Shown one piece after another: positions 4,633 to 8,352 of a DNA stretch of 10,005 nucleotides (the stretch's first letter is position 1; the number at the start of each line of letters is the position of its first letter). Origin of the DNA: Betaproteobacteria bacterium UBA7395 (GTDB lineage Bacteria > Pseudomonadota > Gammaproteobacteria > Burkholderiales > Rhodocyclaceae); assembly GCA_002470165.1 (NCBI GenBank), contig DKNF01000274.1, positions 6,763-16,767 on the forward strand. Direction: 5' to 3'. A program made the translations under genes and the position numbers. The notes beneath the pieces were generated by a model. The model saw nothing but the letters and a program-made list of their open reading frames with translations. It did no database searches and was not told the DNA's origin.

Positions 4633-5586
4633 ATGAACCGCCGCCACATTACCCAGCGCCAGCTCGAAACCTTTGCCAGCGTCGCCCGTCTCGGCAGCTT
4701 TTCGCGTGCGGCGGAGACGCTGCACCTGACCCAGCCGGCGGTCTCGATCCAGATCAAGCAGTTGAGCGAAACGATCGGCCTGCCGCTGTTCGAGCAGATC
4801 GGCCGCGACATCCGCCTGACCGCTGCCGGCGAGGAACTGCAGGCAACGGTGCGGGCACTCGACGACGAATGGGCGCGTTTCGACTCGGCCATCGGCGCCC
4901 TGCAGGGCATGCACAGCGGTCGTCTGCGCGTCGCCCTGGTGACCACCGCCAAGTACTTCCTGCCCCGCATGCTCGGCGCCTTCTGCCGCCGCTATCCGGA
5001 AATCGACGTCCAGCTGGAAATCACCAACCGCGCCGGCGTCGTCGCCCGCATGCGCGGCAACGAGGACGACCTCTACATCATGTCGCTGCCGCCGGCCGAC
5101 ATGGACATCGTCGTCCGCCCCTTCCTCGACAATCCGCTGGTCGTCATCGCCCCACTCGACCACCCCGCCGCCGGCCGGCGCTGCACGGCGGCCGAACTGG
5201 CCGGCGAATCCTTCCTGTTGCGCGAACCCGGCTCCGGCTCGCGCGCCGCCGTCGACCGTCACCTGCAGCAACTCGGCCTGACACCGACCGTCCGCCTCAC
5301 CGTCGCCAGCAACGAAGCCATCCGCGACCTCGTCGCCAGCGGCCTCGGCCTGGCCATCCTGTCGCGGCATTCGCTGGCCGCCGACCCCGCCGAACAAGGG
5401 CTGGCCATCCTCGACGTCGAACATTTCCCGATCCGCCAGCCGTGGTCCATCGTCCATCTGAAAGGAAAAGTGCTGTCACTGCCGGCACAGGCCTTCATCC
5501 GGGAATTGCTGGAAGCCGCCGGCGAATCCCGCGCTCCCGGGCTTCCGGAAACAAAAAAGCCCTCCGCGAAGCAGGGGGCTGATTGA
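4633..5586 (+). CDS. LysR-family regulator, CbbR/CmpR-like
   Basis: The 317-residue protein has a winged helix-turn-helix in the first 60 residues (ITQRQLETFASVARLGSFSR, then AAETLHLTQPAVSIQIKQLSE) and a periplasmic-binding-protein-like effector domain from about residue 90. The segment LRVALVTTAKYFLPRMLGAF resembles CbbR and CmpR, which control CO2-fixation and bicarbonate-uptake genes in response to metabolites such as RuBP, 2-phosphoglycolate or NADPH. Its divergent placement next to sbtA-sbtB supports that role. The last dozen or so residues (TKKPSAKQGAD) are encoded by the inverted terminator of the opposing tRNA gene, so this tail is unlikely to be a conserved part of the protein. Confidence 0.88.
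   Translation: MNRRHITQRQLETFASVARLGSFSRAAETLHLTQPAVSIQIKQLSETIGLPLFEQIGRDIRLTAAGEELQATVRALDDEWARFDSAIGALQGMHSGRLRVALVTTAKYFLPRMLGAFCRRYPEIDVQLEITNRAGVVARMRGNEDDLYIMSLPPADMDIVVRPFLDNPLVVIAPLDHPAAGRRCTAAELAGESFLLREPGSGSRAAVDRHLQQLGLTPTVRLTVASNEAIRDLVASGLGLAILSRHSLAADPAEQGLAILDVEHFPIRQPWSIVHLKGKVLSLPAQAFIRELLEAAGESRAPGLPETKKPSAKQGAD
5553..5580 (-). terminator. Rho-independent terminator of the split tRNA-Gly gene
   Basis: On the minus strand, AGCCC and GGGCT (5580-5576 and 5562-5558) close a GC-rich hairpin that continues, after one mismatch, towards a TTCG-containing loop. It runs straight into six Ts (5558-5553). It starts about 15 nt past the tRNA CCA end. The plus strand has no T-run after the hairpin, so it serves the tRNA and not lysR. 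It lies inside the 3' end of the lysR reading frame. Confidence 0.75.
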
Positions 5587-5595
5587 ACCGGTGAC

Positions 5596-5630
5596 TGGAG
5601 CGGGCGAAGGGAATCGAACCCTCCTCATGA
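5596..5630 (-). tRNA. Exon 2 of the split tRNA-Gly(CCC)
   Basis: This exon starts with TCA, which completes the anticodon stem, followed by a 4-nt variable region, the T-arm, the 3' acceptor strand CGCCCGC, U73 and an encoded CCA. Confidence 0.92.
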
Positions 5631-5671
5631 GGCGGGTAAGGAGGTGACCTCGCGGCCACCCCCTCCCCTAA
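5631..5671 (-). ncRNA. Group II intron domain VI with branch-point A
   Basis: GGGG-A-GGGG (from 5668) pairs with CTCC-TT-(A)-CCC through two G-U pairs, and the helix continues as GTGGCC/GGTCAC capped by GCGA. This leaves one unpaired A at 5637, seven bases from the intron's last base. That is the standard position for the branch-point adenosine that makes the lariat. Confidence 0.85.
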
Positions 5672-5705
5672 GAACCGTACGTGCAAGTTTCCCTGCATAC
5701 GGCTC
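5672..5705 (-). ncRNA. Group II intron domain V (catalytic core)
   Basis: This is a 34-nt hairpin, the canonical domain V length. It opens GAGCCGTATGC and closes with GTACGGTTC, contains the catalytic AGC triad near its 5' end, a GAAA tetraloop region and the expected two-base bulge. It sits 19 nt after the stop codon of the intron protein. Confidence 0.93.
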
Positions 5706-5724
5706 AAGCAACCCTTAAGCATCC

Positions 5725-7392
5725 CTACTTGAACATAGAGGTGCCGGCAGGGCCGTACTTCTCAAGAACATGGTGCTGCCTGTGGCAATTCGGATGCAGC
5801 AGGACCAGATTGGTCAGCTTGTCCGAACCTCGCTCAGATCGCTTGATTATGTGGTGCAAATTCCACCCAGTTTCTCTCGTGATCTTTTGCTTGCATATGG
5901 GGCATAGACCTTCCTGCCACCACCACAAGAAACGAAGCTTGCGGCGCCCCTCGAGCGTCTTGTCCATCCGCTGTGCCAGCCGTTTGGAAAAGTACTCGTC
6001 ATACGTTGGGTCGTAAGGATTCGCTTCGCCCTTGATCTTGGTGTGTGGCCGTTTCCGGTATTCCACCAAGTTGGGTAGCAGCTTGTCCTTGTCCGCAAAT
6101 CGCCAGTCGCGCCCCTTGAGGCACTTGAAGTAACGCTGTTTGATCCACCGTTTCCCCTTTTCAGGGTGACGGCGGCACGCCCAACGCCACAGTGCTTGCC
6201 AGATTTGATGATCGCATCTTGCAAACGTCTGGGATGCCATCTGACTTCGATGATAGTTGGCCCATCCCCGAACAACCGGGCTTAGCTTCTCGATCACCTC
6301 CATCTGTGAGGCAGCCTTCCTTTCGCGTAGCAGGTCGCGGATTTTCCCCAGGAACGCTTTGACATTCTTTTTCGACGGCTGAGTAACCAGCATTCGATTG
6401 AAATGTCTGACGTTCCACCCCAGGAAGTCGAACCCCTCTGTCACATGCGTGATTTTGGTTTTCTTCTCCGAAAGGATGAGGCCTCGGGTGGCCAGGAATT
6501 TCTCCACCAGAGGTTTGACCTTCTCTTCCAGGTACTCCTTCGAGCTACCCGTAATGATGAAGTCGTCCGCGTAGCGCACTAAATTGACCTTGGCAGCTCG
6601 TTCGTCCCGCACTGTTCTGAACAGTGTGGTTAGTTCGCGCTGTAAGCCGTCCAGTGCAAGGTTTGCCAATACCGGGGAAATAATGCCTCCCTGTGGCGTA
6701 CCTGCGTGCGTCGGGAAAAGCCTTCCCATTTCTATGAACCCAGCTTTCAACCACTTCCGAAGGATGCCTTTGTCCATGCAGACATTGGCAACCAGCCAGT
6801 CGTGACTGATGTTGTCAAAACAACCTTTGATGTCCCCTTCCAACACCCATTTCGGCGAAGCTTTTCTCCCAAGTACATTGCGTACTTGTTCGATGGCATC
6901 CGCTGTAGAGCGCTCACGTCTGAAACCGTAGGAATGGGGATCGCCAATCGTCTCGGCGACGGGGTCCAGCGCCAGTAAATGCAGCGCTTGCATCGCACGA
7001 TCGCGCATGGTTGGTATGCCCAGGGGGCGTTTATCACCATTTGCTTTCGGGATGTAGATGCGACGTAGCGGTAACGGCTTGTATCTCTTGTTGCCAAGAT
7101 CAACCACCGCTTTCCACTTCGCCTCCGGCGTATCCCAGGTTTGCTTATCCACCCCTGGAGTTTTCCGGCCTTGATTCTCCGTCACTCGCCTCACAGCCAA
7201 CGCTTTCGCGCTGGTGGATTTGGTCAGGAGCCTCTGCAGGGCGCGAACCTTCCGCCACTCCCCTGCTTTTGCTGCCTTCGCAATTCTTGCCTGTAGCCTC
7301 GCAACAACTTGATAAACCTTGACCCACGAAACATCGTGCCAAGACTGCCAAGTTGCGGAGGCGACATCACAATCATGCTGACTTGCGTCCAT
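5725..7392 (-). CDS. Group II intron-encoded protein: reverse transcriptase, maturase and HNH endonuclease
   Basis: The 555-residue protein is full length. An N-terminal RT-0-like region ends in QGRKTPGVD (residues 74-82). The RT palm has EGDIKGCFD (D187), TPQGGIISP (232-240) and the catalytic YADD at 274-277. Domain X (maturase) includes SPVVRGWANYHRSQ at 371-384. A C-terminal HNH nuclease follows, with CPIC at 497-500, HHI at 513-515 and NCHRQHH at 535-541. Such proteins help the intron RNA splice, cut the second DNA strand and copy the intron into new sites. The ATG at 7392 is chosen because GGAGG sits 5 nt upstream; the frame stays open further up, but only through the tRNA gene. No disabling change is visible. 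The family resembles chloroplast-like (CL) intron proteins. Confidence 0.93.
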   Translation of the reverse strand: MDASQHDCDVASATWQSWHDVSWVKVYQVVARLQARIAKAAKAGEWRKVRALQRLLTKSTSAKALAVRRVTENQGRKTPGVDKQTWDTPEAKWKAVVDLGNKRYKPLPLRRIYIPKANGDKRPLGIPTMRDRAMQALHLLALDPVAETIGDPHSYGFRRERSTADAIEQVRNVLGRKASPKWVLEGDIKGCFDNISHDWLVANVCMDKGILRKWLKAGFIEMGRLFPTHAGTPQGGIISPVLANLALDGLQRELTTLFRTVRDERAAKVNLVRYADDFIITGSSKEYLEEKVKPLVEKFLATRGLILSEKKTKITHVTEGFDFLGWNVRHFNRMLVTQPSKKNVKAFLGKIRDLLRERKAASQMEVIEKLSPVVRGWANYHRSQMASQTFARCDHQIWQALWRWACRRHPEKGKRWIKQRYFKCLKGRDWRFADKDKLLPNLVEYRKRPHTKIKGEANPYDPTYDEYFSKRLAQRMDKTLEGRRKLRFLWWWQEGLCPICKQKITRETGWNLHHIIKRSERGSDKLTNLVLLHPNCHRQHHVLEKYGPAGTSMFK

Positions 7393-7393
7393 A

Positions 7394-7408
7394 TCAACCT
7401 CCGGTTGA
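7394..7408 (-). promoter_or_regulatory. Ribosome binding site of the intron protein inside a small hairpin
   Basis: On the minus strand TCAACC-GGA-GGTTGA forms a 6-bp stem with a 3-base loop that contains the Shine-Dalgarno GGAGG. It begins 1 nt after the CCA end of the carried tRNA and ends 1 nt before the ATG. It could make translation depend on RNA folding or on 3' processing of the tRNA (inferred). Confidence 0.6.
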
Positions 7409-7409
7409 A

Positions 7410-7483
7410 TGGAGCGGGTGATGGGAATCGAACCCACGTTATCTGGTTGGGAACCAGGAGTTCTACCATTGAACTACACCCGC
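7410..7483 (-). tRNA. Complete tRNA-Gly(CCC) carried inside intron domain IV
   Basis: This is a 74-nt cloverleaf with encoded CCA. The acceptor stem is GCGGGTG/CACCCGC, the D-stem GTTC/GAAC, and the anticodon arm CCTGG-TTCCCAA-CCAGA (four pairs plus a C-A at the outer end). The T-arm is GTGGG-TTCGATT-CCCAT and the discriminator is U73. The anticodon is CCC, the same as the interrupted host gene, but the stems differ, so it is not a copy of the host gene. It lies between intron domain III and the intron protein, in the sense orientation, so it is part of the intron transcript. The anticodon-stem differences remove the intron's own target sequence. It may be expressed from the intron transcript or from an upstream -10-like element. 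Confidence 0.94.
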
Positions 7484-7516
7484 TCTATCCCGGGAGGGAA
7501 GACGCACTCGCCCCGC

Positions 7517-7540
7517 GCGGGGATTGTACATCATCCCCGC
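7517..7540 (-). promoter_or_regulatory. Inverted repeat with a TACAAT box upstream of the carried tRNA
   Basis: GCGGGGAT and ATCCCCGC form a perfect 8-bp inverted repeat around an 8-nt loop. On the minus strand TACAAT (7528-7523) lies at its downstream side, 39 nt before the tRNA 5' end, and is followed by the palindrome CCCCGCGCGGGG (7522-7511). It could be the -10 of the tRNA's original promoter with a GC-rich discriminator, but no good -35 is found 16-18 bp upstream. It could equally be a domain IV RNA hairpin. Confidence 0.35.
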
Positions 7541-7813
7541 CGGATGCGATTTACAGACCTGTCTTGCGACAGATCACCAGATGGAAGTCTGCACGCTTTC
7601 GCGTCAGGGAATTTCTCCCCTATCCCCTCCATTACAGAGAGGCATTCGCTTTTTCCACCATCCTCTACCCACTACGGCATCAGATGACCTTGCGGTCATC
7701 CTTGTCCGCCAAACAGGCCGGACGCCACGTTGGGCTTACCGTGTTCCGCATAAGTAACAGAGTTGGGAAGGTTCCGCCTTTTCGCCGGTGACCATCATGT
7801 CAGCGTATCCGCA

Positions 7814-7819
7814 CCAAGC
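7814..7819 (-). other. EBS1 of the intron
   Basis: GCUUGG is the exact reverse complement of the last six bases of exon 1 (CCAAGC). It sits in a 9-nt loop closed by a 6-bp stem (ATCCGC/GCGGAT, 7827-7822 and 7812-7807), as expected for an EBS1 loop. Confidence 0.85.
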
Positions 7820-7884
7820 AAGCGGATAACCGGTCACATGCCTTTTTGGCCAGAGCCCGATACTGCAAGTTGCCTTTGGCTCTT

Positions 7885-7891
7885 CAAGCTT
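7885..7891 (-). other. Candidate EBS2 of the intron
   Basis: AAGCUUG can pair with exon bases UGAGCUU, just upstream of IBS1, through seven pairs (five Watson-Crick, two G-U). It lies about 65 nt before EBS1, a typical distance, but the wobble pairs leave room for doubt. Confidence 0.55.
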
Positions 7892-8266
7892 TACGACGTT
7901 TAATAGCGGTTCACTTGCGTTAACCATCCAACCCAGCCCAGCGCCTCATTCGGGTGCAACTCCCGAAATCATGCCAGACCCCTCACGGGATATGACATAC
8001 CCCGTAAGGTGGCTACATTTTCAGAGCGCTTAGCACCCCACCGTTACCAGTGACGCACCGCTCCTAGACTACCGGGGGCTGAACCCCGGGTTCTGTCACC
8101 TCCTTTCGGAGGGCAGAACAATTACTTATACGGCTTACGCCGTTCCATGCCGTGAGGCACAGTTTAGATACGGCTGTGTTAATGCACTACCCACCGCAAT
8201 GGTGGTGATCCCGCAATGGGATCAGCGTGGTGCAAGGTTACAGCTAACCTACGACTCACGTCGCAC

Positions 8267-8305
8267 GCTTGGGAAGCTCAGGTAATGCCACTATACGACG
8301 CCCGC
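8267..8305 (-). tRNA. Exon 1 of the split tRNA-Gly(CCC)
   Basis: This exon holds the 5' acceptor strand, D-arm, 5' anticodon-stem arm, the anticodon loop and two bases (GC) of the 3' anticodon-stem arm. Its last six bases, CCAAGC, are the IBS1 recognised by the intron's EBS1. TGAGCTT, one base further upstream, can serve as IBS2. Confidence 0.92.
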
Positions 8306-8323: not shown

Positions 8324-8352
8324 ATTCTAGTCCTGGATCACCGGCAATTCAA
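8324..8352 (-). promoter_or_regulatory. Sigma70 promoter of the split tRNA-Gly gene
   Basis: On the minus strand TTGAAT (8352-8347), 17 bases, then TAGAAT (8329-8324). The tRNA 5' end is 19 nt further on, leaving a leader of about a dozen bases, typical of a bacterial tRNA gene. Confidence 0.75.

What the first reader, a model, noticed from the sequence alone, without database searches (positions are those of the whole stretch)
7410..8305. Group II intron that breaks a tRNA-Gly(CCC) gene and carries an intact tRNA-Gly(CCC) inside itself
The intron interrupts tRNA-Gly(CCC) and, within its own domain IV, encodes a complete tRNA with the same anticodon. The inner tRNA is not a duplicate of the broken one: acceptor, D, anticodon and T stems all differ. 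This looks like a self-mobile RNA that damages a translation gene and supplies a replacement, a natural parallel to 'home and rescue'. I know of no described group II intron with a tRNA cargo matching its own target. The structure is seen in the sequence; the rescue role is inference.
Basis: partly seen in the sequence, partly recalled or inferred. Interest (0 to 1): 0.95.

Follow-up and report, generated by a model that had tools for sequence, protein, structure and literature searches.

The report
Jumping intron with spare target tRNA
A predicted mobile group II intron splits a bacterium's tRNA-Gly(CCC) gene and carries inside itself a second, complete tRNA-Gly(CCC) that differs at the base pair flanking the insertion point, so it likely breaks a translation gene and supplies an attack-resistant replacement, a natural parallel to engineered 'home and rescue' gene drives.

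Summary
Confirmed. A 2,636-nt group II intron (8266-5631, minus strand) splits a tRNA-Gly(CCC) after position 40 and carries a complete, different tRNA-Gly(CCC) (7483-7410) 17 nt before its reverse transcriptase. It is a lineage trait: of 81 introns (window plus 80 relatives), 52 lie at this tRNA site; 46 hold a complete inner tRNA, all CCC; four hold it gapped or split by an island; two are cut off. None of 29 relatives at other sites has one. Pair 29:41, beside the insertion point, departs from A:T in 41 of 46 inner copies, 3 of 42 outer copies and 10 of 96 contiguous genes elsewhere in the order; in three loci it is the only inner-outer difference. In genome G088 (listed 100% complete) the intron is broken up and the outer tRNA decayed, yet the inner tRNA is intact and the only contiguous match. 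Rescue, resistance and mobility are inferred; no expression or homing data exist. Against full protection: 40 of 46 inner copies keep the core EBS1/EBS2 match, four keep the whole target core, and no covariation supports EBS3. Eight full-text searches found no description of such an intron; one likely key paper was not held.

The parts
8267..8305 (-). 5' half of the interrupted (outer) tRNA-Gly(CCC), positions 1-40
   Evidence: GCGGG... to CCCAAGC, directly before GTGCGAC; joined to the 3' half it is tRNA-Gly(ccc) by ARAGORN
8324..8352 (-). sigma-70-like promoter (TTGAAT, 17 nt, TAGAAT) upstream of the outer tRNA
   Evidence: consensus match only (9 of 12); 3 sites in the region on both strands against 0.6 (sd 0.8) in shuffles
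5631..8266 (-). group II intron, 2,636 nt, GTGCGAC start, inserted after tRNA position 40
   Evidence: Rfam D1D4-7 and D5/D6 matches; both ends fixed by the tRNA halves
7942..8090 (-). Rfam RF02012 group-II-D1D4-7 match
   Evidence: 106.3 bits, E 4e-22
7887..7891 (-). EBS2 (AAGCT), complementary to AGCTT of the outer tRNA anticodon arm
   Evidence: AAGC invariant in 44 of 44 aligned introns, fifth base variable; assignment by complementarity, not tested
7814..7819 (-). EBS1 (GCTTGG), complementary to CCAAGC at the 5' exon end
   Evidence: GCTTGG invariant in 44 of 44 aligned introns; assignment by complementarity
7410..7483 (-). inner tRNA-Gly(CCC), complete with CCA, in the domain IV region; 29:41 is T:A and 31:39 is G:C
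   Evidence: 21 differences from the joined outer tRNA
7398..7402 (-). Shine-Dalgarno-like GGAGG between inner tRNA and ORF
   Evidence: sequence
5725..7392 (-). intron-encoded protein, 555 aa: RT, maturase (GIIM), HNH; YADD present
   Evidence: TIGR04416 377 bits; RVT_1, RVT_N, GIIM, HNH
5631..5707 (-). group II domains V and VI
   Evidence: RF00029 67.0 bits, E 8.4e-12
5596..5630 (-). 3' half of the interrupted (outer) tRNA-Gly(CCC), from position 41, with CCA

Best explanation
A predicted mobile group II intron splits the tRNA-Gly(CCC) gene and carries a complete second tRNA-Gly(CCC) in its domain IV region that likely keeps the host supplied with this tRNA, and that differs at the base pair flanking the insertion point so that it would resist attack by the intron. 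Shown by sequence: the layout, its restriction to one branch of the protein tree, anticodon CCC in all 46 complete inner tRNAs, the shifted 29:41 pair, and no inner tRNA at other insertion sites. Inferred: (1) the intron homes by retrohoming into the tRNA-Gly(CCC) gene; (2) the transcript from the outer promoter can take two routes: splicing, giving the outer tRNA and the lariat RNP, or RNase P and 3' processing, giving the inner tRNA and a short-leader mRNA for the protein; either way one tRNA-Gly(CCC) is made; (3) because the inner copy covers the loss, the outer copy can fail or decay, as in G088; (4) the inner slot is refilled now and then by recombination with other tRNA-Gly(CCC) genes, under selection to stay CCC, intact and mostly unlike the target.
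For: Of 81 introns (window included) 52 are at the tRNA site: 46 complete inner tRNAs, all CCC; L010 has both ends with scaffold Ns between; L017, L034 and L047 keep the last 18-27 nt beside an inserted island; L035 and L039 are cut off. ARAGORN at default settings finds no tRNA in any of the 29 loci at other sites. tRNA-site proteins are one side of one branch, 46 of 75 rows, support 100/99. Own family: pattern in 12 of 150 genomes, 11 real introns, 4 of them new: 3 with a complete inner CCC tRNA, 1 split by an island. 29:41 is not A:T in 41 of 46 inner and 3 of 42 outer; position 41 is not T in 10 of 96 contiguous genes from genomes of the order (inner vs these p 1e-20; rows are related, so p is only a guide). 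Of 38 loci compared at equal length, in L015, L043 and L046 inner and own outer differ ONLY at 29 and 41, as a compensated double change; in L048 only at 28:42 and 29:41. Pairing is kept under change in the 24 (of 27 distinct) inner sequences given to the count: 98.0% of cells paired (85.4 in shuffles), 61 double-change cells (21.0). In 31 of 43 host genomes tested the only contiguous match to a tRNA-Gly(CCC) pattern is the inner tRNA. G088 (listed 100% complete, 40 contigs): mutated 5' outer half with about ten intron nt on one contig; a domain-IV piece with intact inner tRNA and first ORF codons on another, beside an inverted, mutated 3' outer half; no intron protein found; inner is the single contiguous match. 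Protein frame interrupted but inner tRNA intact in L018, L024, L043, L073 and L110.
Against: No expression, charging, splicing or homing data exist here. 40 of 46 inner tRNAs keep the full EBS1 (6 nt) and core EBS2 (4 nt) complement; L003, L006, L023 and L036, and L110, also keep A29:T41 and C31:G39, so protection cannot rest on base pairing alone and is not universal. No intron base covaries with the first 3'-exon base as an EBS3 should. The fifth EBS2 base does not follow base 29: it is A in L004, L006, L026 and L048, whose outers have A29, and T in L008, L044 and L071, whose outers have T29. So introns do sit in T29:A41 outers. Joined outer tRNAs are intact in 41 of 41 gap-free loci, so splicing may suffice. 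No sigma-70 consensus directly before the inner tRNA in the window or in G088. Two of five covariation measures do not clearly beat shuffles (pairs with double change 42/500, further pair types 410/500). The protein search of G088 had no positive control in that call. Alleles like the inner ones exist in about a tenth of other genomes of the order, so borrowing rather than recoding may explain many inner copies. Some interrupted frames may be sequencing errors.
Confidence: 0.78

Rival explanations
1. The inner tRNA serves the intron, not the host: a tRNA fold just before the start codon marks a processing site that frees the mRNA for the intron protein, or stands in for the maturase-binding stem of domain IV. 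Any rescue is a by-product.
For: Nearly constant place before the ORF (-91 to -18 in 27 of 46, the others within about 30 nt of that), with a Shine-Dalgarno just after it in the window. No sigma-70 consensus before the inner tRNA.
Against: Anticodon CCC in 46 of 46 although any tRNA would be cut by RNase P (recalled); changes at 29:41 have no evident bearing on processing; the inner tRNA is intact where the protein frame is interrupted or gone (L018, L024, L043, L073, L110, G088). Sister introns at other sites do without a tRNA there.
Confidence: 0.1
2. Neutral passenger: a host tRNA was caught once in domain IV and is inherited; splicing restores the outer tRNA, and the inner one is merely tolerated.
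For: Joined outer tRNAs intact in 41 of 41 gap-free loci; tRNA-site introns on one branch.
Against: Inner distances do not follow protein distances (rho 0.01, 630 pairs), so the inner tRNA is not just inherited, yet all 46 are intact and CCC. Compensated changes limited to the insertion-site pair. G088 kept the inner tRNA after the intron died.
Confidence: 0.08
3. The inner tRNA diverged to avoid recombination with the outer copy (direct repeats would delete intron parts), not to avoid homing.
For: Inner and outer differ by up to 21 nt in the same locus.
Against: In L015, L043 and L046 only two bases differ, which would hardly hinder recombination but hit exactly the pair flanking the insertion point.
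Confidence: 0.04

Closest known systems
Bacterial group II introns at the groEL stop codon (Azotobacter vinelandii and others; lineage of Michel et al. 2007, cited in PMC4465626, passages read)
   Same: Nearest relatives by protein outside the tRNA site in this sample (56-59% identity); same GTGCGAC start and similar D5/D6.
   Different: Site read here from the flank GGCATGATGTA and the A. vinelandii report, not from a gene call; insertion at a stop codon should leave the coding frame readable unspliced (inference). None of the 22 found carries a tRNA. The 2007 paper itself is not held, so whether it mentions tRNA-site members is unknown.
Engineered home-and-rescue gene drives (recalled, no call)
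   Same: Element that breaks a needed gene and carries a recoded copy resistant to the same targeting.
   Different: Natural and RNA-based; resistance and rescue untested; 4 of 46 inner copies keep the target core.
Integrative elements at tRNA genes (ICEclc family; ICEPni2 at CCC tRNA-Gly, PMC7466150, passages read)
   Same: Target tRNA-Gly genes and keep the 3' end of the tRNA; islands with the corresponding 18-bp repeat (identical or 1-2 bases off) sit in this intron's inner tRNA in L034 and L047, apparently also L107.
   Different: They repeat only the 3' 18 bp through site-specific recombination; they do not carry a whole altered second gene.
Group I introns in bacterial tRNA genes (Azoarcus tRNA-Ile, cyanobacterial tRNA-fMet; titles seen in reference lists; rest recalled)
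   Same: Self-splicing intron in a bacterial tRNA gene.
   Different: Other ribozyme class; no inner tRNA known to me.
Host genes carried in mobile introns, such as fungal mitochondrial rps3 (recalled, no call)
   Same: A host gene lodged in an intron.
   Different: As far as I recall, the carried gene is not a copy of the interrupted target and is not altered against homing.

Membership tests
Mobile group II intron | Catalytic RNA with domains I and V/VI and GUGYG-type 5' end | tested here: met
   RF02012 106.3 bits and RF00029 67.0 bits; GTGCGAC start
Mobile group II intron | Intron-encoded RT with maturase domain, YADD present, no frame break | tested here: met
   TIGR04416 377 bits over cut-off 300; RVT_1, RVT_N, GIIM, HNH; 555 aa open frame
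Mobile group II intron | EBS1/EBS2 complementary to 5' exon | tested here: met
   GCTTGG to CCAAGC and AAGCT to AGCTT in the window; EBS1 GCTTGG and EBS2 AAGC invariant in 44 of 44
Mobile group II intron | 3' end AY (recalled rule) | tested here: not met
   Window intron ends CC; several relatives end AC. A minor departure shared with its near relatives; the boundary is fixed by the tRNA 3' half
Mobile group II intron | Splicing and retrohoming activity | not testable with these tools
   needs RNA and mating assays
Home-and-rescue type element (works like) | Inserts into and interrupts a host gene | tested here: met
   52 of 81 introns, window included, at the same tRNA-Gly(CCC) site; L027, L033, L035 and L039 placed by the 3' exon alone, L014, L016, L047 and L050 by the 5' exon alone
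Home-and-rescue type element (works like) | Carries a complete copy of the same gene | tested here: met
   46 of 46 complete inner tRNAs are tRNA-Gly(CCC) with CCA; 4 more gapped or split
Home-and-rescue type element (works like) | Carried copy differs at the target site | tested here: met
   42 of 46 differ from A29:T41 or C31:G39; only-difference cases L015, L043, L046; 4 of 46 do not differ
Home-and-rescue type element (works like) | Difference blocks homing | tested here: inconclusive
   core EBS1/EBS2 match kept in 40 of 46 inners; no EBS3 covariation; fifth EBS2 base does not follow base 29
Home-and-rescue type element (works like) | Carried copy restores function | tested here: inconclusive
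   Comparative only: the one contiguous match in 31 of 43 genomes; G088

The most novel reading that the evidence does not exclude
A natural home-and-rescue retroelement: a group II intron lineage that survives by breaking a single-copy tRNA gene while handing the host a recoded, attack-resistant replacement, so that every transcript yields one tRNA-Gly(CCC) either by splicing (outer) or by tRNA processing (inner), and the host becomes dependent on the intruder's copy.
Probability: 0.65. Interest if true: 0.97.

Novelty: new variant of a known kind. Interest (0 to 1): 0.92.

Why it matters
Selfish introns are thought to stay harmless by splicing well. This lineage points to a second solution: carry a spare of the gene you break, altered where you would cut. 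It would be a natural counterpart of a strategy invented for gene drives, in bacteria and made of RNA. It also offers a test bed for how host dependence on a mobile element arises: G088 looks like the end state, where the intruder is dead and its tRNA has taken the place of the host's.

Tried and rejected
Assembly artefact: rejected, same layout in many independent assemblies. EBS3 covariation with the first 3'-exon base: sought, not found. Conserved promoter before the inner tRNA: TA(C/G)(A/T)AT-like hexamers in some Rhodocyclales lie in a hairpin (for the window) and are missing in other clades (by eye); no consensus hit. Inner tRNA following protein phylogeny: rejected (rho 0.01). Weak host tracking: inner is slightly nearer its own outer than other outers (9.2 vs 10.6 differences, permutation p 0.0016, 41 loci, target pairs masked). 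A lax ARAGORN scan of the upstream 300 nt, shown for 11 loci without a default call, gave two overlapping tRNAs (Leu, Lys, opposite strands) in L075 only; taken as noise. Plasmid search: capped at 5,000 records, only 3 at 60-80% identity, none followed. IMG/VR: 6 relatives at 41-56% identity, not examined. Paper searches: eight aimed at the finding, one at groEL introns, one at ICEclc. I saw listings and abstract starts; only 25 of 30, 25 of 132 and 15 of 38 papers were listed. Passages were read in PMC8919778, PMC4390854, PMC4465626, PMC3073962 and PMC7466150. None seen describes a tRNA inside a bacterial group II intron. Most subscription papers are not held.

Full report
WHAT IS THERE. On the minus strand of the window a tRNA-Gly(CCC) gene is split after position 40, in the 3' strand of the anticodon stem. 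The 5' half is 8305-8267, the 3' half 5630-5596; joined, ARAGORN reads them as tRNA-Gly(ccc). Between them lies a 2,636-nt group II intron (Rfam D1D4-7 and D5/D6; RT, maturase and HNH domains). Seventeen nt before the start codon of the intron protein ends a complete tRNA-Gly(CCC), 7483-7410. It differs from the joined outer tRNA at 21 of 74 positions. In the own genome (83.6% complete) it is the only contiguous match to a tRNA-Gly(CCC) pattern.

IT IS A LINEAGE TRAIT. A scan of one genome per species found 430 relatives and kept the best 80, with 54-95% protein identity. With the window, 52 of 81 lie in tRNA-Gly(CCC) at the same position; eight of these are placed by one exon alone (3' only: L027, L033, L035, L039; 5' only: L014, L016, L047, L050). 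By their 5' flank 22 lie at the groEL stop codon, and 7 elsewhere or unclassified (L065, counted as other, is by its flank a near-variant of the groEL site). Of the 52, 46 have a complete inner tRNA, all with anticodon CCC. L010 has both ends of it with scaffold Ns between. L017, L034 and L047 keep its last 18-27 nt. L035 and L039 cannot tell. ARAGORN at default settings finds no tRNA anywhere in the 29 loci at other sites (L075 has only 256 nt upstream of its ORF in hand, and a lax scan gave two weak overlapping calls there). In a protein tree of 75 rows the 46 tRNA-site rows form one side of one branch, support 100/99, rooted at the midpoint (L007 with Xs, L018, L024, L043 and L073 with internal stops, and the short L039 left out). 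In the own family 12 of 150 genomes matched an ORF-start pattern; one was chance, seven were already in hand (window included), and four were new: three with a complete inner CCC tRNA, one split by an island. In a draw of 399 genomes of the order, 3 have the exact junction, the own genome included.

THE INNER COPY DIFFERS WHERE THE INTRON INSERTS. EBS1 GCTTGG and EBS2 AAGC are invariant in 44 of 44 aligned introns and complement the 5' exon CCAAGC and GCTT. The insertion lies between positions 40 and 41, so 41 is the first 3'-exon base; its partner 29 lies just beyond the invariant IBS2 core. The 29:41 pair is A:T in 39 of 42 outers, but in only 5 of 46 inners (T:A 26, G:C 15). Six inners, the window's among them, have 31:39 swapped, inside IBS1. 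As background, 97 of 120 genomes of the order have a contiguous tRNA-Gly(CCC) match, 98 matches in all; leaving out the own genome and G088, position 41 is not T in 10 of 96 (my count from the list; the exact intron junction was not found in these genomes). The Fisher p for inner against this background is 1e-20, inner against outer 1e-15, and outer against background not significant; rows are related, so these are guides only. Of 38 loci compared at equal length, in L015 and L043 (A:T to G:C) and L046 (A:T to T:A) the inner differs from its own outer at these two bases and nowhere else; in L048 only 28:42 and 29:41 differ. These are compensated double changes at the pair that flanks the insertion point.

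LIMITS OF THAT READING. 40 of 46 inners still match EBS1 and the core of EBS2. L003, L006, L023 and L036 (and L110) keep the whole target core. No intron base covaries with the first 3'-exon base as an EBS3 should. The fifth EBS2 base does not follow base 29 (A in L004, L006, L026, L048 with A29 outers; T in L008, L044, L071 with T29 outers), and those last three show that the intron can live in T29:A41 genes. Such alleles also occur where no intron protein lies within about 2.5 kb (ten loci). So the enrichment is firm, but resistance is inferred.

THE INNER COPY LOOKS LIKE A WORKING TRNA GENE. 24 of the 27 distinct inner sequences were given to a pair count: 98.0% of cells paired (85.4% in shuffles), 61 double-change cells (21.0), covariation score 0.323 (0.100); two of the five measures, pairs with a double change and further pair types, do not clearly beat the shuffles. 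All 46 are CCC although the cargo does not follow the intron: inner and protein distances are uncorrelated (rho 0.01, 630 pairs). L018, L024, L043, L073 and L110 have an interrupted protein frame but an intact inner tRNA; sequencing errors cannot be excluded. Among 43 host genomes, 32 have exactly one contiguous match to the tRNA-Gly(CCC) pattern: by its letters the inner one in 31, and an island's copy in Thauera propionica. Ten have none, because their inner T-arm (GATCCCC) falls outside the pattern, so extra copies of that kind would be missed too; one, L040's, has a second match that was not examined.

NATURAL EXPERIMENTS. (a) Islands: in Solimonas fluminis (L047/L085/L087) and a Burkholderiales MAG (L034/L086) foreign DNA lies at the 3' end of the inner tRNA. 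An integrase-like frame (read by eye, no search run; likeness to P4-type integrases recalled) follows the complete inner tRNA, and the last 18 nt recur before the intron protein, about 89 kb away in S. fluminis and on another contig in the MAG. ICEPni2 of Pseudomonas uses the corresponding 18 bp of a CCC tRNA-Gly, identical or one to two bases off (PMC7466150, passages). In T. propionica an element of about 21-22 kb cuts the inner tRNA and brings a whole tRNA-Gly(CCC) that, by eye, equals the joined outer one apart from its last bases. L107 shows an 18-nt remnant; its far end was not fetched. In these genomes cis-splicing of the outer tRNA should be blocked (inference). (b) Fossil: in G088 (3.6 Mb, 40 contigs, listed 100% complete) the outer 5' half with about ten aligned intron nt lies on one contig (L099), with several substitutions. 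On another (L098) a piece of about 160 nt, 83% identical to the window's domain-IV region, holds an intact inner tRNA and the first codons of the ORF. Just upstream, inverted, lies a D6-like stretch with a mutated outer 3' half (by eye). No intron protein was found in the genome (no positive control in that call) or in these two loci (where L101 served as a positive). The inner tRNA is the only contiguous match.

MECHANISM. The best account: the intron interrupts the gene, and the inner copy, made from the same transcript by tRNA processing, covers for it. The outer tRNA has a sigma-70-like promoter (8352-8324); none was found before the inner one, nor before the G088 copy. So processing from the outer transcript is the likelier route in the window, while G088 must use some other start. 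This step is inferred.

WHAT IS KNOWN. The groEL-site introns belong to a lineage described by Michel et al. 2007 (known here only through a passage of PMC4465626; the paper is not held). Eight full-text searches aimed at the finding (listings, some capped) showed no description of a tRNA inside a bacterial group II intron. Home-and-rescue drives, group I introns in tRNAs and fungal rps3 introns are recalled parallels. The element is a group II intron by tested features, save its CC end. It works like a home-and-rescue element on layout and on the changed pair, while rescue and resistance await experiment.

Noticed in passing
L085, L086, L087 (S. fluminis; Burkholderiales MAG Ga0077547): Foreign DNA with an integrase-like frame (by eye) lies at the 3' end of the inner tRNA and splits the intron, by about 89 kb in S. 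fluminis; the inner tRNA seems to serve as an attachment site.
   Followed up: partly
L084 1840-2020 (Thauera propionica): An element with two large frames (487 and 1,122 aa; recombinase-like by eye) cut the inner tRNA and carries a whole tRNA-Gly(CCC) like the joined outer one: a second case of an intruder bringing its own replacement.
   Followed up: partly
L107: Further case of an 18-nt inner tRNA remnant with unrelated DNA upstream, in the window's own family; far end not fetched.
   Followed up: no
L044 vs L071; L010 vs L011: Identical intron proteins in MAGs labelled as different phyla or orders (Planctomycetota vs Proteobacteria; Lysobacterales vs Rhodocyclaceae), likely binning errors.
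   Followed up: no
L029/L040; L019/L020; L004/L038: Close intron proteins (2-3% apart) with quite different inner tRNAs: the cargo seems to be exchanged faster than the intron diverges.
   Followed up: partly
window 5631-5632: Intron ends CC rather than the usual AY (recalled rule); several relatives in other clades end AC.
   Followed up: no
L088-L097: About a tenth of the contiguous tRNA-Gly(CCC) genes in the order are not A:T at 29:41, some identical in the anticodon arm to inner copies; possibly naturally resistant alleles or domesticated inner tRNAs.
   Followed up: partly
genome of L040 (G431:C3:736216-736243): A second, two bases shorter match to the contiguous tRNA-Gly(CCC) pattern; not examined.
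   Followed up: no
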